Assembly: GCA_963169745.1 (NCBI GenBank)
Contig: CAUJCU010000011.1
Location: forward strand, 1-64,000
Origin: Bacteroidota bacterium
GTDB lineage: Bacteria; Bacteroidota; Bacteroidia; UBA4408
Direction of reading: 5' to 3'
DNA: 64,000 nt
Made by a program: the position numbers and the translations under genes. This document shows positions 27,451-35,450 of this stretch, piece by piece. Within the stretch, counting starts at the first letter, position 1; every line of letters starts with the position of its first letter. The notes beneath the pieces are model-generated. The model was given only the letters and a program-made list of their open reading frames with translations, was not told the DNA's origin and ran no database searches.

Positions 27451-28836
27451 ATGAGTGAAAAGATGCGAACTCTTACAGAGCCTTTTAAAATAAAAGTGGT
27501 TGAACCACTTCGAGTAACAACCGAAGAATACCGAAAAAAAGTTTTACAAGAAGCAGGCTATAATACATTCTTATTACATTCAAAAGATGTTTTTATTGAT
27601 TTGCTTACTGATAGTGGTACAGGAGCTATGAGCGATAAGCAGTGGGCTGGTATTATGGTAGGCGATGAAAGCTATGCCGGAGCCAAAAGTTGGGAAAATC
27701 TAGATGCTGTAGTTAAAGAGCTAACCGGAATGCCTTACGTATTGCCTACCCATCAAGGTAGAGCAGCAGAACGTATTTTATATGGAATATTAGGAGGCAA
27801 AGGAAAAGTCTTTATCAGCAATACACATTTTGATACTACCCGAGCCAATATTGAATTTACCGGAGCAACGGCCATTGATATTATTAATGAAGAGGCCGAA
27901 GATACCGAGGTTGACCTTCCGTTTAAAGGAAATATAGATATTGAAAAACTGGAAGAACTTATTGCACAATATGGGAAAGAAAACGTAGCCGCTATAATTA
28001 TAACTGTAACCAATAATTCATCAGGAGGGCAACCGGTAAGCATGGCCAATGTAGAAGCCCTAAGAAAGGTGTGCAACACACATCAAATACCTATGGTTAT
28101 TGATGGATGCCGTATTGCAGAAAATGCTTATTTTATCAAACATCGTGAAAAAGGATTTGAGAACAAAACATGCCAAGATATTGCGAAGCAAATGCTCCGC
28201 TTAGGTGATGCTTTTGTAATGAGTGCCAAAAAAGATGGCATGGTAAATATGGGAGGATTACTTACCGTAAAAGACGAAGAGCTTTCCGTGAAGTGTAAAA
28301 ATCTACTTATTATTTCCGAAGGATTTACTACCTACGGTGGCCTTGCAGGTCGTGATATGGAAGCACTTGCCATAGGCCTTACTGAAGTTTTTGACGAAGA
28401 TTACCTTCACTATCGTATCAGAAGCACCGCCTATTTAGGTGAAAAGCTACGTGCTAAAGGAGTTCCGGTTGTGTGGCCTATTGGCGGACATGCTGTTTAT
28501 ATTGACGCTAAAAAACTTTATTCTCATATTCCGCTTCACGAATATCCTGGACAGGCTTTGGTTTGTGACTTATACATAAAGGGAGGTATTCGTACAGCAG
28601 AAATTGGTAGTTTAATGTTTGGAAAATATGATGAACAGGGAAAACTAATTCCAGCCACCAACGAATTAGTTCGTTTGGCTATTCCGCGCAGAGTATATAC
28701 ACAAAGCCATATAGACTACGTACTGGATATCTTTGACGATATTTTAGAGTTGAAGAATCAGAAAAGAGGATACCGTATAACCTACGAACCCCCATTTTTA
28801 AGACATTTTACCGCTCGATTAGAAAAAATAGATTAA
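27451..28836 (+). CDS. tnaA: Tryptophanase (tryptophan indole-lyase)
   Basis: The product has 461 residues and is a PLP beta-eliminating lyase. Tryptophanase splits L-tryptophan into indole, pyruvate and ammonia. The PLP lysine is in MSAKKDGMVNMGG (Lys261). LTDSGTGAMS, PTHQGRAAE and SSGGQPVSMAN match the family. Two sites separate it from tyrosine phenol-lyase: AEIG (Ile385) where the phenol-lyase has MER with its phenol-binding Arg, and RHFTARL with His452, as in E. coli tryptophanase. A paralog assigned as tyrosine phenol-lyase starts 29 bases downstream. Specificity is inferred from these residues. Confidence 0.88.
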   Translation: MSEKMRTLTEPFKIKVVEPLRVTTEEYRKKVLQEAGYNTFLLHSKDVFIDLLTDSGTGAMSDKQWAGIMVGDESYAGAKSWENLDAVVKELTGMPYVLPTHQGRAAERILYGILGGKGKVFISNTHFDTTRANIEFTGATAIDIINEEAEDTEVDLPFKGNIDIEKLEELIAQYGKENVAAIIITVTNNSSGGQPVSMANVEALRKVCNTHQIPMVIDGCRIAENAYFIKHREKGFENKTCQDIAKQMLRLGDAFVMSAKKDGMVNMGGLLTVKDEELSVKCKNLLIISEGFTTYGGLAGRDMEALAIGLTEVFDEDYLHYRIRSTAYLGEKLRAKGVPVVWPIGGHAVYIDAKKLYSHIPLHEYPGQALVCDLYIKGGIRTAEIGSLMFGKYDEQGKLIPATNELVRLAIPRRVYTQSHIDYVLDIFDDILELKNQKRGYRITYEPPFLRHFTARLEKID

Positions 28837-28865
28837 ATATTAATATTGCTTATAAACACATAGTT

Positions 28866-30248
28866 ATGAAAAACATTAAAAAGCGCTCTTGGGCAGAGCC
28901 ATACAAAATGAAAATGGTAGAACTTTTAAAAATGACTACCAAGCCACAACGTATTAAAGCTATTAAAGATGCCGGATATAATACATTCTTATTACCCTCA
29001 GAAGATGTTTACATTGATTTGCTTACAGACAGTGGAACCAATTCTATGAGCGATAGACAGTGGGGCGTATTTATGACCGGAGATGAAGCCTATGCCGGAA
29101 GTAAAAGTTATTATATTTTAGAAGAGGCTATTAAAAAATACTATGGTTATAAATATGTTGTACCCACACATCAAGGTCGTGCAGCTGAAAATATATTGTC
29201 TCAAATTCTTATTAAGAAAGGAGACATTGTACCGGGTAATATGTACTTTACCACAACGCGCTTACACCAAGAGCTTGCAGGAGGAACATTTGTTGATGTT
29301 ATTATTGACGAAGCCCATGACCCACTTAACGAACATCCGTTTAAAGGAAACATAGATATAGGCAAGCTGGATAAATTGGTAAAAAAACATGGAGCCAAAA
29401 AAATTCCTTATGTATGCTTAGCCACCAATGTTAATATGGCCGGTGGGCAACCGGTAAGTATGGCTAATTTGAAAGAGTTAAGAGCTTATACCAAAAAACA
29501 CGGAATTCGAATTATTCATGATATGACTCGAGTTGCTGAAAATGCCTACTTTATTCAACAACGTGAAAAAGGATATGACAAAAAAAGTATTCGTGAAATA
29601 GTAAAAGAAATTTGCTCTTATACAGACGGTGCCACCATGAGTGCCAAGAAAGATGCTCTGGTAAATATTGGAGGCTTTATGGCTATTAATGATTGGGATG
29701 TTTTTGAAGAAGCCCGAAACTTAGTTGTTGTGTATGAAGGTTTACATACTTATGGAGGTTTGGCCGGAAGAGATATGGAGGCCATAGCAGTTGGAATTGC
29801 AGAAAGTTTAGACGATAACCATCAACGTGCTCGTGTGGGACAGGTAGAATACCTGGGACAAAAAATGATAGAATACAACATTCCCATTGTAAAGCCAATT
29901 GGAGGACATGGAATATTTGTTGATGCCAAAGCCTTTTTGCCTCATCTTACACAAGATCAGTTTCCGGCACAAACTTTAGCTGCCGAACTTTATATTGATT
30001 CAGGAGTAAGAACAATGGAGCGCGGTATTGTATCAGCAGGTAGAAAACCCAATGGCGAAAACTACTATCCCAAATTAGAATTGGTTCGCTTTACAATTCC
30101 AAGACGTGTTTATACTCAGGCCCACATGGATGTAATTGCCGAATCAGCAGCAGCCGTTTACGATAAACGAAAATCAATAAAGGGCTTAAAAATGGTTTAT
30201 GAACCCAAGTATTTACGTTTCTTTCAGGCACGTTTCCAAAAATTATAA
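28866..30248 (+). CDS. tpl: Tyrosine phenol-lyase
   Basis: The product has 460 residues and is a paralog of the preceding gene. Tyrosine phenol-lyase splits L-tyrosine into phenol, pyruvate and ammonia. The PLP lysine is Lys262 in MSAKKDALVNIGG. It retains GVRTMERGI, where Arg386 corresponds to the phenol-binding Arg381 of the Citrobacter enzyme, and the C-terminal RFFQARF with the paired Phe residues of the active site. LTDSGTNSMSDRQW and GNMYFTTTR also follow the phenol-lyase pattern. Close spacing suggests one transcript with tnaA. No aromatic-amino-acid permease is adjacent. Confidence 0.9.
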   Translation: MKNIKKRSWAEPYKMKMVELLKMTTKPQRIKAIKDAGYNTFLLPSEDVYIDLLTDSGTNSMSDRQWGVFMTGDEAYAGSKSYYILEEAIKKYYGYKYVVPTHQGRAAENILSQILIKKGDIVPGNMYFTTTRLHQELAGGTFVDVIIDEAHDPLNEHPFKGNIDIGKLDKLVKKHGAKKIPYVCLATNVNMAGGQPVSMANLKELRAYTKKHGIRIIHDMTRVAENAYFIQQREKGYDKKSIREIVKEICSYTDGATMSAKKDALVNIGGFMAINDWDVFEEARNLVVVYEGLHTYGGLAGRDMEAIAVGIAESLDDNHQRARVGQVEYLGQKMIEYNIPIVKPIGGHGIFVDAKAFLPHLTQDQFPAQTLAAELYIDSGVRTMERGIVSAGRKPNGENYYPKLELVRFTIPRRVYTQAHMDVIAESAAAVYDKRKSIKGLKMVYEPKYLRFFQARFQKL

Positions 30249-30265: not shown

Positions 30266-30282
30266 GAGTTTTATAGTTGCGA

Positions 30283-30699
30283 ATGAAACTAAAAGCACGA
30301 TACACTTTTTTTACACTAAGTATATTGTTTTTAGTATATACGGGATCCATTTATTTACGACCATTAAGAGCCGGTTCTATGAACAGCTCCAAGGAGGCTA
30401 TTAGCGGACGCATAGTGTGGCAAAAGTATAATTGCCAGAGCTGTCATCAGTTATATAGTTTGGGTGGATATTTAGGCCCCGATTTAACCAATATTATGTC
30501 GCAGCCCGGTAAGGGAGAAGTATGGGTAAGGGCTATGCTACAAGTAGGACCTAAACAAATGCCTCAATTTCATTTAACTGAAGTAGAAACAGAGGAACTA
30601 ATAGCTTTTTTAAAATCAACGGATAGTAGCGGTGTAGCCGACCCCCGAAATTTTAAAACCAGTGCATCAGGGATGATTGAAAGTAATGGAAGAAACTAA
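30283..30699 (+). CDS. NorC-like membrane-anchored cytochrome c
   Basis: The product has about 138 residues with one N-terminal membrane helix (about residues 9-25) and one periplasmic c-type heme domain. The heme motif is CQSCH (Cys51, Cys54, His55), and the distal ligand is the Met of KQMPQFHLTE near residue 93. The order and spacing (GRIVWQKYNC, GGYLGPDLTNI, MPQF, EELIAFLK) follow NorC, the electron-accepting subunit of cytochrome c-dependent nitric oxide reductase. I chose ATG 30283 rather than the in-frame TTG 30277. The NorB-like gene overlaps its 3' end by 14 bases, so the products are almost certainly partners. Confidence 0.85.
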   Translation: MKLKARYTFFTLSILFLVYTGSIYLRPLRAGSMNSSKEAISGRIVWQKYNCQSCHQLYSLGGYLGPDLTNIMSQPGKGEVWVRAMLQVGPKQMPQFHLTEVETEELIAFLKSTDSSGVADPRNFKTSASGMIESNGRN

Positions 30700-32011
30700 A
30701 ATAGAACCCGGAAAATTATTTTTAAAAACAGCCTTGGTTATGATGCTGTCAGCTGCTCTTTTTGGACTTTTGGCAGCATTAACGTATATCTATCCCGACT
30801 TTTTAAAAGAAAGTGTAGGCTTTACTGCTCTTCGCCCACTTCATGTATCATCAGCTTTGTTTTGGATTATTTTGGGGGCAACAGGATGTGTTTTTAGTGG
30901 TCTAAATACGTTAACTAAAAAGAGCAAAAATAATAAAGTGGCATTGCTTCAGTGGGGTTTATGGATCTTGAGCATAAGTGGTATTTTTATTTCTTACTTT
31001 AGAAAAGATTTTGGAGGGCGCGAATACTGGGAGTTTAATCCTATATGGGCACTTCCTATAGCTTTGGCTTGGATACTCTTTTTGTATAACTTTTTTAGCA
31101 GAATTAAAAAATTAAGGAAATGGCCTGTATATGTTTGGATGTGGCTTACAGGTATAGTATTCTTTATGTTTATTTTTTTAGAAAATTACTTGTGGATTTT
31201 CCCCTATTTTAGACAGCATTTTATTACGGATATGACCATTCAGTGGAAAGTGAATGGCAGCTTGGTAGGCTCATGGAATCAAATGCTTTACGGAACAGCC
31301 ATTTTTTTAATGGACAAAATTTCAGGAAGCAAGAAGGCAGGGCAAAATAAAATAGCCTTTGCTATGTATTTTTTGGGCTTGTTTAATTTAATGTTTAACT
31401 GGGGCCACCATATATATACCTTACCTACCGAAAAATATATTCGACTCATCGGTTACTCGGTAAGTATGACCGAATGGATTATTTTTCTAAAAATTATTTA
31501 CGACTGGCGTGCTACGGTAACCACAATACAAAAGCATTACCATTATTTCCCATATAAGTTTATTATGGCCTCCGATATATGGGTGTTTTTCCATGTATTA
31601 CAAGCAACTTTAATTTCAATTCCAGCTATAAATATTTATACCCATGGAACCCATTTTACGGTAGCTCACTCAATGGGAACCACTATAGGTATTAATACCA
31701 TGATACTACTTGCAGTTTGCTTTGAATTTTTAAAACCAGATACGTATCAAGGTACAAAATCATATCAATTCTTAAATTGGGTTTTTTGGTTCCTGCAAGT
31801 ATTTTTACTAGTGTTTCTAATAGCCCTAATGACTGCCGGAATAAAGAAAGGACTATGGCAACTAAGTAGCAATCAAAGTAGTTTCTCAGATATGATGCAA
31901 ACCTTGTATCCGTACTTTGTTGCCTTTACAGTTACCGGTGCCGGTATTTTAATTACTCTGGCAATTTTTGCCTTTCATTTATTACAGCCTAATTCAAAAT
32001 CAAAACCGTAA
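30686..32011 (+). CDS. NorB-like heme-copper oxidoreductase with altered catalytic site
   Basis: The product has 441 residues with about twelve membrane helices, the size of NorB. Retained landmarks are low-spin heme His53 (RPLHVSSALFW), GREYWEF, the FeB pair NWGHH (His241-His242), a Glu in SMTEW (Glu263, matching NorB Glu280), and heme b3 His328 in THGTHFTVAHSMG. NorB's HLWVEGVWE segment reads NGSLVGSWN here, so the third FeB His and both glutamates are absent by my alignment. The second low-spin His is replaced by Met330. The protein is therefore unlikely to be a normal NO reductase. Nitric oxide dismutase-like or another activity is possible. ATG 30686 was chosen over TTG 30677. Confidence 0.85.
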   Translation: MEETKIEPGKLFLKTALVMMLSAALFGLLAALTYIYPDFLKESVGFTALRPLHVSSALFWIILGATGCVFSGLNTLTKKSKNNKVALLQWGLWILSISGIFISYFRKDFGGREYWEFNPIWALPIALAWILFLYNFFSRIKKLRKWPVYVWMWLTGIVFFMFIFLENYLWIFPYFRQHFITDMTIQWKVNGSLVGSWNQMLYGTAIFLMDKISGSKKAGQNKIAFAMYFLGLFNLMFNWGHHIYTLPTEKYIRLIGYSVSMTEWIIFLKIIYDWRATVTTIQKHYHYFPYKFIMASDIWVFFHVLQATLISIPAINIYTHGTHFTVAHSMGTTIGINTMILLAVCFEFLKPDTYQGTKSYQFLNWVFWFLQVFLLVFLIALMTAGIKKGLWQLSSNQSSFSDMMQTLYPYFVAFTVTGAGILITLAIFAFHLLQPNSKSKP

Positions 32012-32112: not shown

Positions 32113-32490
32113 TTGAAGAACCTGACACTCATAGTGCTTCTTGTTGCTTTGTTAAATGCTGTATTTAGCAAAACCATCATTTATGTTAATTATTTGATAT
32201 ATGTAAATGAAATTACGGTAAAGTATTGTGAAAATAAATCGCGTCCTGCTATGGCTTGTCAAGGAAAGTGCTACCTAAAAAAACAATTGCATAATCAGGA
32301 GCAGAAGGAAGAAGCAACTCAAAATATTTTCCAAAATTTATTTGAAATTTTATTGTTTTCACCAACATCTTGTTTTAAAATATTTAACCCTTTAACAGAT
32401 GTTATAAAAAGAAAAATCCCCTGCTTAGAAGGCTTTTCATCATTCTTTTTTTTCTTTGTTTTTCGACCACCCAAAACGTGTTTTATATAG
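32113..32490 (+). CDS. Small membrane protein with a conserved Cys motif
   Basis: The product has 125 residues and is a hypothetical protein. It has an N-terminal hydrophobic segment (residues 4-30) and a second near the end (FSSFFFFFVF). Between them is a Cys cluster: C39, then C49 and C53 in MACQGKCYLKKQL. The pattern Cys, nine residues, Cys-x-GKCyL recurs, from memory, in small Bacteroidota proteins encoded beside metal-uptake genes, which suits the copper receptor two genes downstream. There is no ATG at the front; TTG 32113 is the best start. A metal-binding or metal-transfer role is inference. Confidence 0.6.
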   Translation: MKNLTLIVLLVALLNAVFSKTIIYVNYLIYVNEITVKYCENKSRPAMACQGKCYLKKQLHNQEQKEEATQNIFQNLFEILLFSPTSCFKIFNPLTDVIKRKIPCLEGFSSFFFFFVFRPPKTCFI

Positions 32491-32607
32491 AAAAATCAAC
32501 CTCTTTTTTTGATAAAAATAGAGTAGTATTTTTTGTATCTCTTATTTAAAGAGACCATCACATTCTTAAATAAAACATTCTTTAACTCGTATAAAAAAAG
32601 ATTATAT

Positions 32608-33447
32608 ATGAAAACAGTAAAATATATGGTATTGCTTAGTATTATTATAGCATTTACCAGTTCGTGTAAAAAAAACAATCCGGTTGATGACAGTGAACAA
32701 CCGGAAAAACCAATAGTGGAAAATCCGAATACCAAATTAGGAGAAACATATATTCTCGGGGCCAAAGCCAAAGCTATTGTTTATAGTAAAAAGTCGCTAA
32801 TTACTGGTTATAACGAAATTTTAGTTGCCTTTTATGATTCTATAAATGGAAGCCCTTTGTCGTCCGGAAAATTAACGGTTACACCTATAATGGATATGGG
32901 AACTATGACACACAGCGCTCCGGTTGAAAATTCAGACGCTCAAGCTGATGAAAATGGATATTTCAAAAGTAACGTAGTATTTACCATGCCCGGTACCGCA
33001 TCAGAATGGTCTCTAAAGCTCCATTTTATAAACAATAAGAACGGGCTTCAGGGGAATGGCAGCATTGGCGTTTCTGTAGCAGCCTCTTCTCCTTCAAAAC
33101 TTATAAATACTACCCTGAGTGCCGATAGTAGCCGAAAAATATTTATTTCATTGTTGCAACCTGCTGCTCCAGAAGTTGGTATTAACAATTTTGAAATTAC
33201 CGTACATCAAAAAAGCACCATGATGGATTTTCCGGCTGTTAGCGATTATACTTTTGAAATTGAACCTGAAATGCCAAGTATGGGACATGGTTCGCCTAAC
33301 AATGTAAACCCTGTTTATACCGGAAACGGACACTATGTTGGGAAGGTAAACTATACGATGACCGGGCTGTGGTATATTCGTTTAAAAATATACAAAAACG
33401 GGACTTTAATCAGTAACGACCAATATTTTGAAATGACATTGAACTAA
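32608..33447 (+). CDS. YtkA-like lipoprotein, candidate copper-binding protein
   Basis: The product has about 279 residues. A signal peptide ends in a lipobox (FTSSCKK). Two immunoglobulin-like, YtkA-type units follow: one with PIMDMGTMTHS and TMPGTASEWSLKLHF, another with PEMPSMGHGSPNNV and TMTGLWYIRLKI. Both carry clustered Met and His before the strand, a pattern compatible with copper binding. Its last base is shared with the ATG of the downstream TonB receptor, so the two are translationally coupled. I chose ATG 32608; an upstream in-frame codon at 32533 would put extra residues before the signal peptide. Confidence 0.75.
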   Translation: MKTVKYMVLLSIIIAFTSSCKKNNPVDDSEQPEKPIVENPNTKLGETYILGAKAKAIVYSKKSLITGYNEILVAFYDSINGSPLSSGKLTVTPIMDMGTMTHSAPVENSDAQADENGYFKSNVVFTMPGTASEWSLKLHFINNKNGLQGNGSIGVSVAASSPSKLINTTLSADSSRKIFISLLQPAAPEVGINNFEITVHQKSTMMDFPAVSDYTFEIEPEMPSMGHGSPNNVNPVYTGNGHYVGKVNYTMTGLWYIRLKIYKNGTLISNDQYFEMTLN

Positions 33448-35450
33448 TGGTTAAAAAAAAGCTTTCGTTATTAATTTTGATTCTCATTTCAGGAGTTCTT
33501 TTGGGGCAAGAAGCCCCAAAAGACTCTGTAATGAAGATAATTAACCTCAGCGAGGTTCAAATTTCTGAAGAAGGATATGAAAACAATAATGCGTTTAATT
33601 TTTACAAACAAAACAAATTATCCACTATTGAAGATATTTTGTCTCGAATACAAGGTGTAAACCTTATTAAAAGAGGGGCTTATGGTTTAGAGCCATCATT
33701 GCGCAATTACAGTGGAGGCCAAACCAACATAAGTATTGACGGAATGCGAATATATGGTGCTTGTACAGATAAAATGGATCCTGTTTCTATCTATGTTGAA
33801 CCGAGTAATTTATCAGGTATTCAGGTTGCACATGGCTCGTCTGGTTCGTTTAATGGGAGTACTGTTGGAGGGCTAATCAACATGAAAATAAAAGAACCAA
33901 TAATACTTTCAAGTGCCCGCCCTCATGGCGATTTTTCACAAACGTATGCCCATGTAAACAAGGCTTTGTTCACTACAGCAACGCTGCAACAGAGCTATAA
34001 AAAACTAACCTACCGAATCAATGGAACATACCGGAAAGCCGATGATTATGCAGCAGGAGGCGGATTAATAATTCCCTACTCTGGCTTTGAGAAATATAAT
34101 TTAGGAGGGTCACTTTTATATAAAATATCGGAAAAACAGAAAATTAAAACAGACTATTTGGGCGACTGGGGTAAAAACATTGGATATCCTGCTTTGCCTA
34201 TGGATGTTGCTTCTGCAGTAGCCAACATAGTTTCGTTAACACATCAACTTACTTTTAAAAACAAATGGGTTAGCTCCAATGAGATAAAAGTCTATTACAA
34301 TGCAATTACCCATAAAATGGATGATACGCATAGACCCTATGTTCCCATGCACATGGATATGCCCGGATGGACCCAAACTATAGGTTTTTTTAATGAGTTA
34401 ACTAGTAACGAAAATTTGAAAATTAGGCTTGATGCGCATCATGTAAACTCCCGTGCCGATATGGTAATGTACCCTAAAGGAGAGCCTGTTATGTATTTAC
34501 AAACACTTCCTGAAAATGATTTAATTAATGGGGGTCTATCTTTACAATATTTACGTAATTTTAAGTACCATCAGGAAATAACAATGACTGCCCGGGGCGA
34601 TTTTTTTACTCAGATGGCTGTATTGGGGCCCGGATCTAAGCAGTGGAAAGTTTTTAATACTGACGTTACGCAAAGATTGATAAACGTATTAAAAAATGGA
34701 AACCTTACTTATTCCAAACGTTTTTATGAAAAAATTATACTGCAAGTTACGGCCGGTTATAGTGAGCGCATTCCCTCCTCAAACGAGCGCTATGGATTTT
34801 ATTTATTTAACCGGCAAGATCAATTTGATTATATCGGAAATAGCTTGCTAAAACCGGAACAATCGTTACAGGGAGAGGTTTCAGTAAAGCATAAAATGCA
34901 ACATGTGGAGTATGGAGTAACTCTTTTTTATCACCATATTCGTAATTATATTTATGCCTACAAACTAGCACATGTTGGACAAATGACAATTGGTGCCCAA
35001 GGGTCTAAAACCTATCGAAACATTGATTATGCTCTGTCACAAGGATTTGAAACAAATATAAAGGCCCATTTTTTACAAAACTTTTTCTATATTAATAATA
35101 TGAAATTTGTGTATGCTCAAACCTTTTTAGGGCAGCCTTTAGCTTTAATACCCCCCTTAAAGTTACAACAAGCACTACGCTATGCATATAATTTATATCA
35201 ATTTCAAGTGGAGCATGACTATGCCATGGCTCAAAACCGCATTAATAGTGATTTTGGGGATAAGGCAACTCCAGAGTATCACCTCTTTAATATACGCGTC
35301 TCTAAAAACTTTAGAATAAAAGAAACTGTTTTACAAGCTACTTTAGCTTGCGAAAATATTTTTGACACAAACTATAGAGAGCACTTGGATATTGGGCAAA
35401 TTCCACGATTTGGCCGCAATTTTATTTTCAATACAAGCTTTTTATTTTAA
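33447..35450 (+). CDS. TonB-dependent copper receptor, OprC/NosA type
   Basis: The product has 667 residues: signal peptide (cleavage near LLGQ), plug domain (about residues 30-150) and a 22-strand-type barrel ending in Phe. Copper-site motifs of the Pseudomonas OprC family are visible: CTDKM (Cys106-xxx-Met110) in the plug and HKMDD (His289-x-Met291) in the barrel. These match the CxxxM and HxM ligands reported for OprC. A further Met-rich stretch is VPMHMDMPGW. The start overlaps the upstream lipoprotein stop. OprC-like receptors import copper across the outer membrane using TonB energy. TonB/ExbBD are not in this window. Confidence 0.88.
   Translation: MVKKKLSLLILILISGVLLGQEAPKDSVMKIINLSEVQISEEGYENNNAFNFYKQNKLSTIEDILSRIQGVNLIKRGAYGLEPSLRNYSGGQTNISIDGMRIYGACTDKMDPVSIYVEPSNLSGIQVAHGSSGSFNGSTVGGLINMKIKEPIILSSARPHGDFSQTYAHVNKALFTTATLQQSYKKLTYRINGTYRKADDYAAGGGLIIPYSGFEKYNLGGSLLYKISEKQKIKTDYLGDWGKNIGYPALPMDVASAVANIVSLTHQLTFKNKWVSSNEIKVYYNAITHKMDDTHRPYVPMHMDMPGWTQTIGFFNELTSNENLKIRLDAHHVNSRADMVMYPKGEPVMYLQTLPENDLINGGLSLQYLRNFKYHQEITMTARGDFFTQMAVLGPGSKQWKVFNTDVTQRLINVLKNGNLTYSKRFYEKIILQVTAGYSERIPSSNERYGFYLFNRQDQFDYIGNSLLKPEQSLQGEVSVKHKMQHVEYGVTLFYHHIRNYIYAYKLAHVGQMTIGAQGSKTYRNIDYALSQGFETNIKAHFLQNFFYINNMKFVYAQTFLGQPLALIPPLKLQQALRYAYNLYQFQVEHDYAMAQNRINSDFGDKATPEYHLFNIRVSKNFRIKETVLQATLACENIFDTNYREHLDIGQIPRFGRNFIFNTSFLF

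What the first reader, a model, noticed from the sequence alone, without database searches (positions are those of the whole stretch)
30686..32011. NorB-like protein that has lost an FeB ligand and the catalytic glutamates
Seen: His241-His242, His328, His53 and Glu263 align with NorB ligands, but NorB's HLWVEGVWE is NGSLVGSWN here. The first FeB His becomes Asn190 (or Gly191, depending on a one-residue shift), and the two Glu positions are not acidic. Known: NorB needs these residues for NO reduction, and catalytic-site substitutions are reported for putative nitric oxide dismutases (Nod). Inference: this enzyme either dismutates NO, makes another product, or binds NO without turnover. It differs from typical Nod in being short and paired with a NorC-like cytochrome c rather than fused to a quinol-oxidase-type N-terminal domain.
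Basis: partly seen in the sequence, partly recalled or inferred. Interest (0 to 1): 0.85.

Follow-up and report, generated by a model that had tools for sequence, protein, structure and literature searches.

The report
NorB-like enzyme missing key metal ligands
This bacterial gene belongs to a widespread, previously unnamed (as far as I could check) family of nitric-oxide-reductase-like membrane enzymes in Bacteroidota that lost a metal-binding histidine, the catalytic glutamates and one haem-binding histidine, yet travels with denitrification genes, so it may be the missing nitric oxide enzyme of denitrifiers that appear to lack one.

Summary
The 441-aa protein at 30686-32011 lacks the helix-VI FeB histidine (N190/G191) and both helix-VI glutamates. 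The second haem-b histidine is also gone: AHGHM is AHSMG, with Met330 instead. This is not a one-off. I aligned 106 different Bacteroidota relatives. His53, His241, His242, Glu263, His328, Met330, Lys188, Gly191, Gly195 and Asn198 are identical in all 106. The family is monophyletic and lies outside cNOR, qNOR, Nod and cbb3. A NorC-like cytochrome c gene is its regular neighbour (77 of 80 loci).

It is not a Nod. Real Nod proteins in related genomes, sometimes in the same gene cluster, keep the helix-VI His and Glu and change HH to HN and Glu to Gln, the opposite set.

The family tracks nosZ (47 of 59 carriers versus 47 of 236 non-carriers) and lies among NO-stress genes. All 20 carriers tested that lack cNOR also lack NorQ, which loads FeB into cNOR; all 11 cNOR genomes have it.

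Most likely it is a NorC-fed NO reductase with a rebuilt active site: haem b3 plus a His2/Glu metal site or none, and a His/Met haem b. Activity is inferred, not shown.

The parts
30686..32011 (+). norB-like gene, 441 aa, 12-TM heme-copper-oxidoreductase fold ('F family')
   Evidence: ORF; COX1 Pfam E 2e-34; PDB cNOR 4xyd E 4e-14; AF2 pLDDT 93.2, pTM 0.93; VIA-align Z 41.1 to cNOR and 41.5 to cbb3
30277..30699 (+). norC-like gene, 140 aa, N-terminal TM plus one haem c (CQSCH, Met95)
   Evidence: PDB NorC 3o0r_C E 7e-14; overlaps norB-like start by 14 bases; relative in 77 of 80 loci; Cys53, Cys56, His57, Met95 in 82 of 82 aligned sequences
30842..30844 (+). His53: first axial ligand of low-spin haem b (inferred)
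   Evidence: 106/106 in family, His in all cNOR, qNOR, Nod, cbb3
31247..31249 (+). Lys188, family-specific invariant Lys one helical turn from the lost FeB-His position
   Evidence: 106/106; V/T/W in cNOR, qNOR, Nod, cbb3
31253..31279 (+). NGSLVGSWN (190-198): altered FeB motif of helix VI; no His, no Glu; Gly191, Gly195, Asn198 invariant
31406..31411 (+). His241-His242: the two remaining non-haem metal histidines
   Evidence: 106/106; HH in cNOR, qNOR, cbb3, HN in Nod
31472..31474 (+). Glu263 (cNOR Glu280 position), Gln in Nod, Leu in cbb3
   Evidence: 106/106
31667..31669 (+). His328: proximal ligand of haem b3 (inferred)
   Evidence: 106/106 and in all comparison families
31673..31675 (+). 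Met330 where every compared cNOR, Nod and cbb3 has the second haem-b His
   Evidence: 106/106 Met
27451..28836 (+). beta-eliminating lyase (tryptophanase / tyrosine phenol-lyase family), conserved neighbour
   Evidence: family in 49 of 80 loci
28866..30248 (+). tyrosine phenol-lyase (over the NCBIfam cut-off), directly upstream of norC-like gene
   Evidence: TIGR02618 746.8 bits, cut-off 720.7

Best explanation
It is the catalytic subunit of a two-subunit, cytochrome-c-fed enzyme acting on nitric oxide, most likely reducing it to N2O, with a rebuilt active site. Inferred path: electrons enter at the NorC-like haem c, pass to a low-spin haem b held by His53 and Met330, and reach haem b3 (His328). 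NO binds at haem b3. The second metal either sits in a reduced His241/His242/Glu263 set (a 2-His-1-carboxylate site) or is absent. Invariant Gly191 and Gly195 leave an opening where the FeB His and Glu would stand, and invariant Lys188 could reach into it. Shown: sequence pattern, conservation, family separateness, NorC partner, absence of the NorQ chaperone gene in 20 carriers, genomic link to nosZ and NO-response genes. Inferred: haem and metal content, the electron path and the reaction.
For: NorC-like partner directly upstream in 77/80 loci, with its haem ligands invariant. Strong tie to nosZ: 47/59 carriers versus 47/236 non-carriers, p 1.5e-17; stratified by taxonomic family, odds ratio 111, p 6e-10. 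Gene clusters contain Rrf2 regulators, RIC iron-sulfur repair protein, NosDFYZ, Crp-type regulator and NrdDG. Eight of 17 sampled genomes with nir and nosZ lack cNOR/qNOR; five of those carry this family, and four of the five have no match to the two other NOR-like proteins tested. Own genome has nirK and no cNOR or qNOR. His241, His242, Glu263, His328 are 106/106, so the site is under selection, not decaying.
Against: cNOR needs the missing His and Glu. NorQ, required for FeB insertion in cNOR (PMC9976466), is absent from all 20 carriers tested, although qNOR does not need it. Twelve of 59 carriers have no nosZ and ten have neither nir nor nosZ. The own genome has two other NOR-like heme-copper homologues. 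No biochemical data were found. Tree and fold place it as near cbb3 oxidase as cNOR, so substrate cannot be read from ancestry.
Confidence: 0.52

Rival explanations
1. It binds or scavenges NO (or another ligand) at haem b3 without steady turnover: a membrane NO buffer or sensor that kept its electron donor by descent.
For: Loss of the helix-VI FeB His and both Glu residues that cNOR needs; NorQ absent in 20/20 carriers tested.
Against: Why keep a haem-c partner with invariant ligands and HH plus Glu263 in 106/106 if no redox chemistry occurs; strong tie to nosZ.
Confidence: 0.13
2. It reduces another substrate, such as O2 at very low levels, or oxidises NO.
For: Structure and several invariant residues (Gln186, Tyr202, Asn337) are shared with cbb3 oxidase, and the unrooted tree joins it to cbb3.
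Against: Two of the three CuB histidines only; no cbb3 subunits II/III among the recurrent neighbours; partner is NorC-like; tie to nosZ and NO-response genes. The join to cbb3 is flagged as long-branch.
Confidence: 0.15
3. It is a nitric oxide dismutase making N2 and O2.
For: One FeB histidine is lost, as in Nod, though a different one.
Against: Its substitutions are the complement of Nod's; it is outside the Nod clade; it keeps an electron-donor subunit, which a dismutase would not need; true Nod genes occur beside it.
Confidence: 0.05
4. It is an ordinary cNOR in function whose FeB site is completed by residues from elsewhere (for example Lys188 or Asn198).
For: Lys188 and Asn198 are family-specific and invariant and lie on the conserved face of helix VI.
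Against: No His or Glu replaces the lost ones on helix VI in any of the 106 sequences; NorQ is absent; it branches outside cNOR.
Confidence: 0.12

Closest known systems
[quoted passage not shown] PDB 4xyd, 3o0r)
   Same: Fold; NorC-like partner; haem-b3 His, first haem-b His, HH pair, Glu280 equivalent, THGT motif; best sequence hits
   Different: No helix-VI FeB His, no Glu211/Glu215 equivalents, Met for the second haem-b His, no NorQ gene in the carriers tested; separate branch
cbb3 oxidase subunit CcoN (PDB 3mk7, 6xkw)
   Same: Fold (Z 41.5); Gln186-Trp187, Tyr202, Asn337 shared; joined in the unrooted tree
   Different: CuB His of helix VI lost; NorB-type Glu263 present; NorC-type partner; HxH is HxM
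Nitric oxide dismutase (Nod)
   Same: Same superfamily branch; also loses one FeB histidine; sometimes in the same gene cluster
   Different: Nod loses the other histidine (HH to HN) and Glu to Gln, keeps helix-VI His and Glu; has a fused N-terminal domain; separate clade
eNOR, sNOR, gNOR, nNOR, bNOR (Murali et al. 2024)
   Same: Also NOR-like heme-copper families with changed active sites
   Different: Described as B-family relatives (PMC11388526), and eNOR, sNOR and gNOR as carrying a cupredoxin subunit (PMC8756737). Their sequences and the defining paper were not available, so no direct comparison

Membership tests
Heme-copper oxidoreductase superfamily | Twelve-helix subunit I fold | tested here: met
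   AF2 model pTM 0.93; Z about 41 to CcoN and NorB
Heme-copper oxidoreductase superfamily | Histidine sextet (PMC3413370) | tested here: not met
   Four of six kept (53, 241, 242, 328); helix-VI His and second haem-b His lost in 106/106
cNOR | FeB ligands His207, Glu211, His258, His259 | tested here: not met
   Only the HH pair is present
cNOR | NorC partner with His/Met haem c | tested here: met
cNOR | NorQ maturation chaperone | tested here: not met
   0/20 carriers without cNOR versus 11/11 cNOR genomes
cNOR | Branches inside the cNOR clade | tested here: not met
   F family 100/99, cNOR 99/97 as separate groups
qNOR | Fused N-terminal cytochrome-c-like domain | tested here: not met
   441 aa, no such domain; PF22085 finds no qNOR in own genome
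Nod | HH to HN and Glu280 to Gln with helix-VI His/Glu kept | tested here: not met
Nod | Branches inside the Nod clade | tested here: not met
   Nod monophyletic 100/97 without this family
cbb3 CcoN | Three CuB histidines and bis-His haem b | tested here: not met
eNOR/sNOR/gNOR/nNOR/bNOR | B-family sequence with cupredoxin subunit II | tested here: inconclusive
   Partner is NorC-like and best matches are cNOR and cbb3, but reference sequences of these families were not available
NO reductase (function) | Turns NO into N2O | not testable with these tools
   Needs biochemistry

The most novel reading that the evidence does not exclude
A new branch of the heme-copper superfamily, widespread in Bacteroidota, that reduces NO without a classical FeB: at most a His2/Glu metal site, or haem b3 alone with an invariant lysine in the vacated space, fed through a His/Met low-spin haem b. 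It supplies the missing NO-reduction step in part of the Bacteroidota recorded as carrying nir and nosZ but no nor.
Probability: 0.3. Interest if true: 0.9.

Novelty: new variant of a known kind. Interest (0 to 1): 0.76.

Why it matters
Three FeB histidines and two acidic residues are regarded as essential for respiratory NO reduction. A conserved family that dispenses with one His and the helix-VI acids, and replaces a haem-b His by Met, would show that the chemistry can be done another way, or reveal a different NO reaction. It is also practical. Bacteroidota supply most of the 'terminator' genomes (nosZ without nir) in a recent survey, and 9% of the Bacteroidota denitrifiers there carry nir and nosZ but no recognised nor (PMC12569097). 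That survey excluded sequences lacking conserved ligands, which would probably discard this family. In my sample it fills five of eight such gaps, so N2O budgets built from nor counts may be off for this phylum.

Tried and rejected
A first alignment of the loci was wrong because minus-strand loci were not turned; one search replaced it. Single-gene artefact, frameshift or pseudogene: rejected, 106 different intact relatives. Nod: rejected on residues and tree. Placement inside cNOR: rejected. Viral or plasmid origin: no relative in phage records or viral contigs, and plasmid hits are only distant cNOR-like proteins at about 25% identity. The paper defining nNOR, sNOR, gNOR and eNOR is not held. 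A search for a methionine-ligated low-spin haem in this superfamily found nothing relevant. Several hits first counted as qNOR proved to be Nod on inspection, so the c/qNOR column includes Nod; G156, G092, G010 and G015 were not inspected residue by residue. A one-genome-per-branch test of the nosZ link was replaced by a family-stratified one, which leaves out 90 genomes whose family code was not listed.

Full report
WHAT WAS CHECKED. The ORF at 30686-32011 (+) encodes 441 residues without interruption; the opposite strand there has many stops. It belongs to the COX1 superfamily (Pfam E 2e-34). Its best solved relatives are cNOR NorB (4xyd E 4e-14, 3o0r 2e-10), followed by CcoN of cbb3 oxidase (5e-8) and qNOR. 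The upstream ORF 30277-30699 is NorC-like (E 7e-14 to 3o0r_C) and overlaps the norB-like start by 14 bases, as in a translationally coupled pair.

THE ACTIVE SITE. In the alignment with cNOR, qNOR, Nod and cbb3 the protein keeps His53 (haem b), His241-His242 (two of three FeB/CuB histidines), Glu263 (cNOR Glu280) and His328 (haem b3). Profile alignments put Gly191 at the FeB-His position; Asn190 varies (N/Y/A/G/S/L) whereas Gly191 never does. The invariant residues of helix VI (187, 188, 191, 195, 198, 202) fall on one helical face with Gly191 near its centre (permutation p 0.044, so only suggestive). All compared cNOR, Nod and cbb3 rows have His there, while one of the qNORs has Tyr.

IT IS A FAMILY. 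Fifteen of 60 relatives have an orthologue at 37-64% identity, then a gap to about 22%. A scan of genome contigs found at least 574 related stretches; the best 80 are nearly all labelled Bacteroidota. In 106 different sequences His53, Lys188, Gly191, Gly195, Asn198, His241, His242, Glu263, His320, His328 and Met330 are 106/106. Among 295 genomes of the class, 59 carry it, with scores over 400 bits against under 67 for everything else. The AlphaFold2 model is confident (pLDDT 93.2, pTM 0.93) and matches CcoN and NorB equally (Z 41.5 and 41.1).

PLACE IN THE SUPERFAMILY. A maximum-likelihood tree of 49 rows gives five clean groups: this family 100/99, cNOR 99/97, Nod 100/97, cbb3 100/100, qNOR 87/80. 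The unrooted tree puts this family on the cbb3 side, but the programme warns that long branches meet. It is therefore neither inside cNOR nor inside Nod.

NOT A NOD. PMC3413370 reports that Nod replaces one coordinating His by Asn and a nearby Glu by Gln. Genes with exactly that pattern (SHNFYW, STLQ, with VVHMWVEAFFE kept) turned up in the genomes examined, in several cases a few kilobases from this family's gene: L062, L078, L089, L105, L110, L146, L154. This family has the complementary pattern.

GENOMIC SETTING. A NorC-like gene lies in 77 of 80 loci, with CxxCH and Met95 in 82/82 aligned sequences. Other recurrent neighbours are tyrosine phenol-lyase/tryptophanase (49 loci), Rrf2 regulator (36), NadA/NadB, RIC iron-sulfur repair protein (21), MbnP/MbnH, NosD/F/Y/Z and NrdD/G. 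The gene is strongly tied to nosZ: 47/59 carriers versus 47/236 others (Fisher p 1.5e-17; family-stratified odds ratio 111, p 6e-10). The tie to nir is weaker (p 0.0025). Of 17 genomes with nir and nosZ, eight lack cNOR/qNOR; five of these (G009, G079, G197, G205, G269) carry this family, and all but G269 also lack the two other NOR-like proteins tested. The window's own genome has nirK, no nosZ, cNOR or qNOR, but does have two other heme-copper homologues with NOR-like residues at the cross-link position, so redundancy is possible there.

CHAPERONES. NorQ and NorD insert FeB into cNOR; without them cNOR has its haems but no FeB and is inactive, whereas qNOR needs neither (PMC9976466). NorQ is absent from 20/20 carriers without cNOR and present in 11/11 cNOR genomes, beside norB. 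In the 80 loci it occurs in only four; in at least three of them a canonical norCB stands alongside. This fits a changed or missing FeB but does not prove it.

MECHANISM. The best-supported account is a NorC-fed NO reductase with a rebuilt site (confidence 0.52). Retention of HH and Glu263 in every member argues that something still binds there, perhaps a 2-His-1-carboxylate metal. The glycines at 191 and 195 open space, and Lys188 may fill it. These steps are inference; no coordinates or biochemistry were available. Low-turnover NO binding, a cbb3-like O2 reaction and a completed ordinary FeB site remain possible; NO dismutation is unlikely.

NOVELTY. No paper found describes this family, but most subscription and non-CC-BY literature, including the paper defining eNOR/sNOR/gNOR/nNOR, could not be read. 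Secondary sources describe those families as B-family relatives, and eNOR, sNOR and gNOR as having a cupredoxin subunit, unlike this one. I rate it a new variant of a known kind.

Noticed in passing
window 27451-30248; L036-L115: One or two tyrosine phenol-lyase/tryptophanase genes sit directly upstream of (or just after) the norC-norB* pair in 49 of 80 loci across many Bacteroidota; no reason known to me links an amino-acid lyase to NO reduction.
   Followed up: partly
L062:451-2865, L078:1-1761, L089:1090-3432, L105:5194-7542, L110:5217-7538, L146:4078-6408, L154:2120-4774: Genes with the full nitric oxide dismutase signature (HN, STLQ) lie within a few kilobases of this family's gene in several Bacteroidota; L150 has two different Nod-like genes in tandem.
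   Followed up: partly
L003:1261-2928 (G000:C9): Another heme-copper homologue in the window's genome has GHSSQQ (Gln at the cross-link Tyr position, as reported for eNOR) and GHFK, a Lys where the second low-spin haem His should be.
   Followed up: partly
L004:1366-2832 (G000:C2): A further heme-copper homologue with GHTLVN (Asn at the cross-link position, as tabulated for sNOR and CuANor); relatives in 6 of 59 carriers, and in G072:C13 a fragment with stop codons right beside the norB-like gene.
   Followed up: partly
window 32113-35450: Downstream: a 125-aa Cys-containing protein with no Pfam match, a YtkA-domain lipoprotein-like protein, and a TonB receptor whose best NCBIfam match is the copper receptor (below cut-off).
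   Followed up: no
L149:6415-8664: A qNOR with AVHGY in helix X: Tyr instead of the second haem-b His.
   Followed up: no
L053:4389-6197 and 31 other loci: A roughly 600-aa protein without a match in Pfam or NCBIfam at the cut-offs used recurs upstream of the cluster in 32 of 80 loci; a 190-aa protein without an NCBIfam match recurs in 21.
   Followed up: no
L098:6332-7564, L071:15526-16815: COX1-like proteins of 411-430 aa (no Pfam match, and a weak COX1 match just under the cut-off, respectively) recur near this family and the nos genes.
   Followed up: no
L049, L050, L056: A canonical norC-norB cluster with norQ lies a few genes upstream of this family's norC-norB* pair, so the two kinds coexist.
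   Followed up: partly
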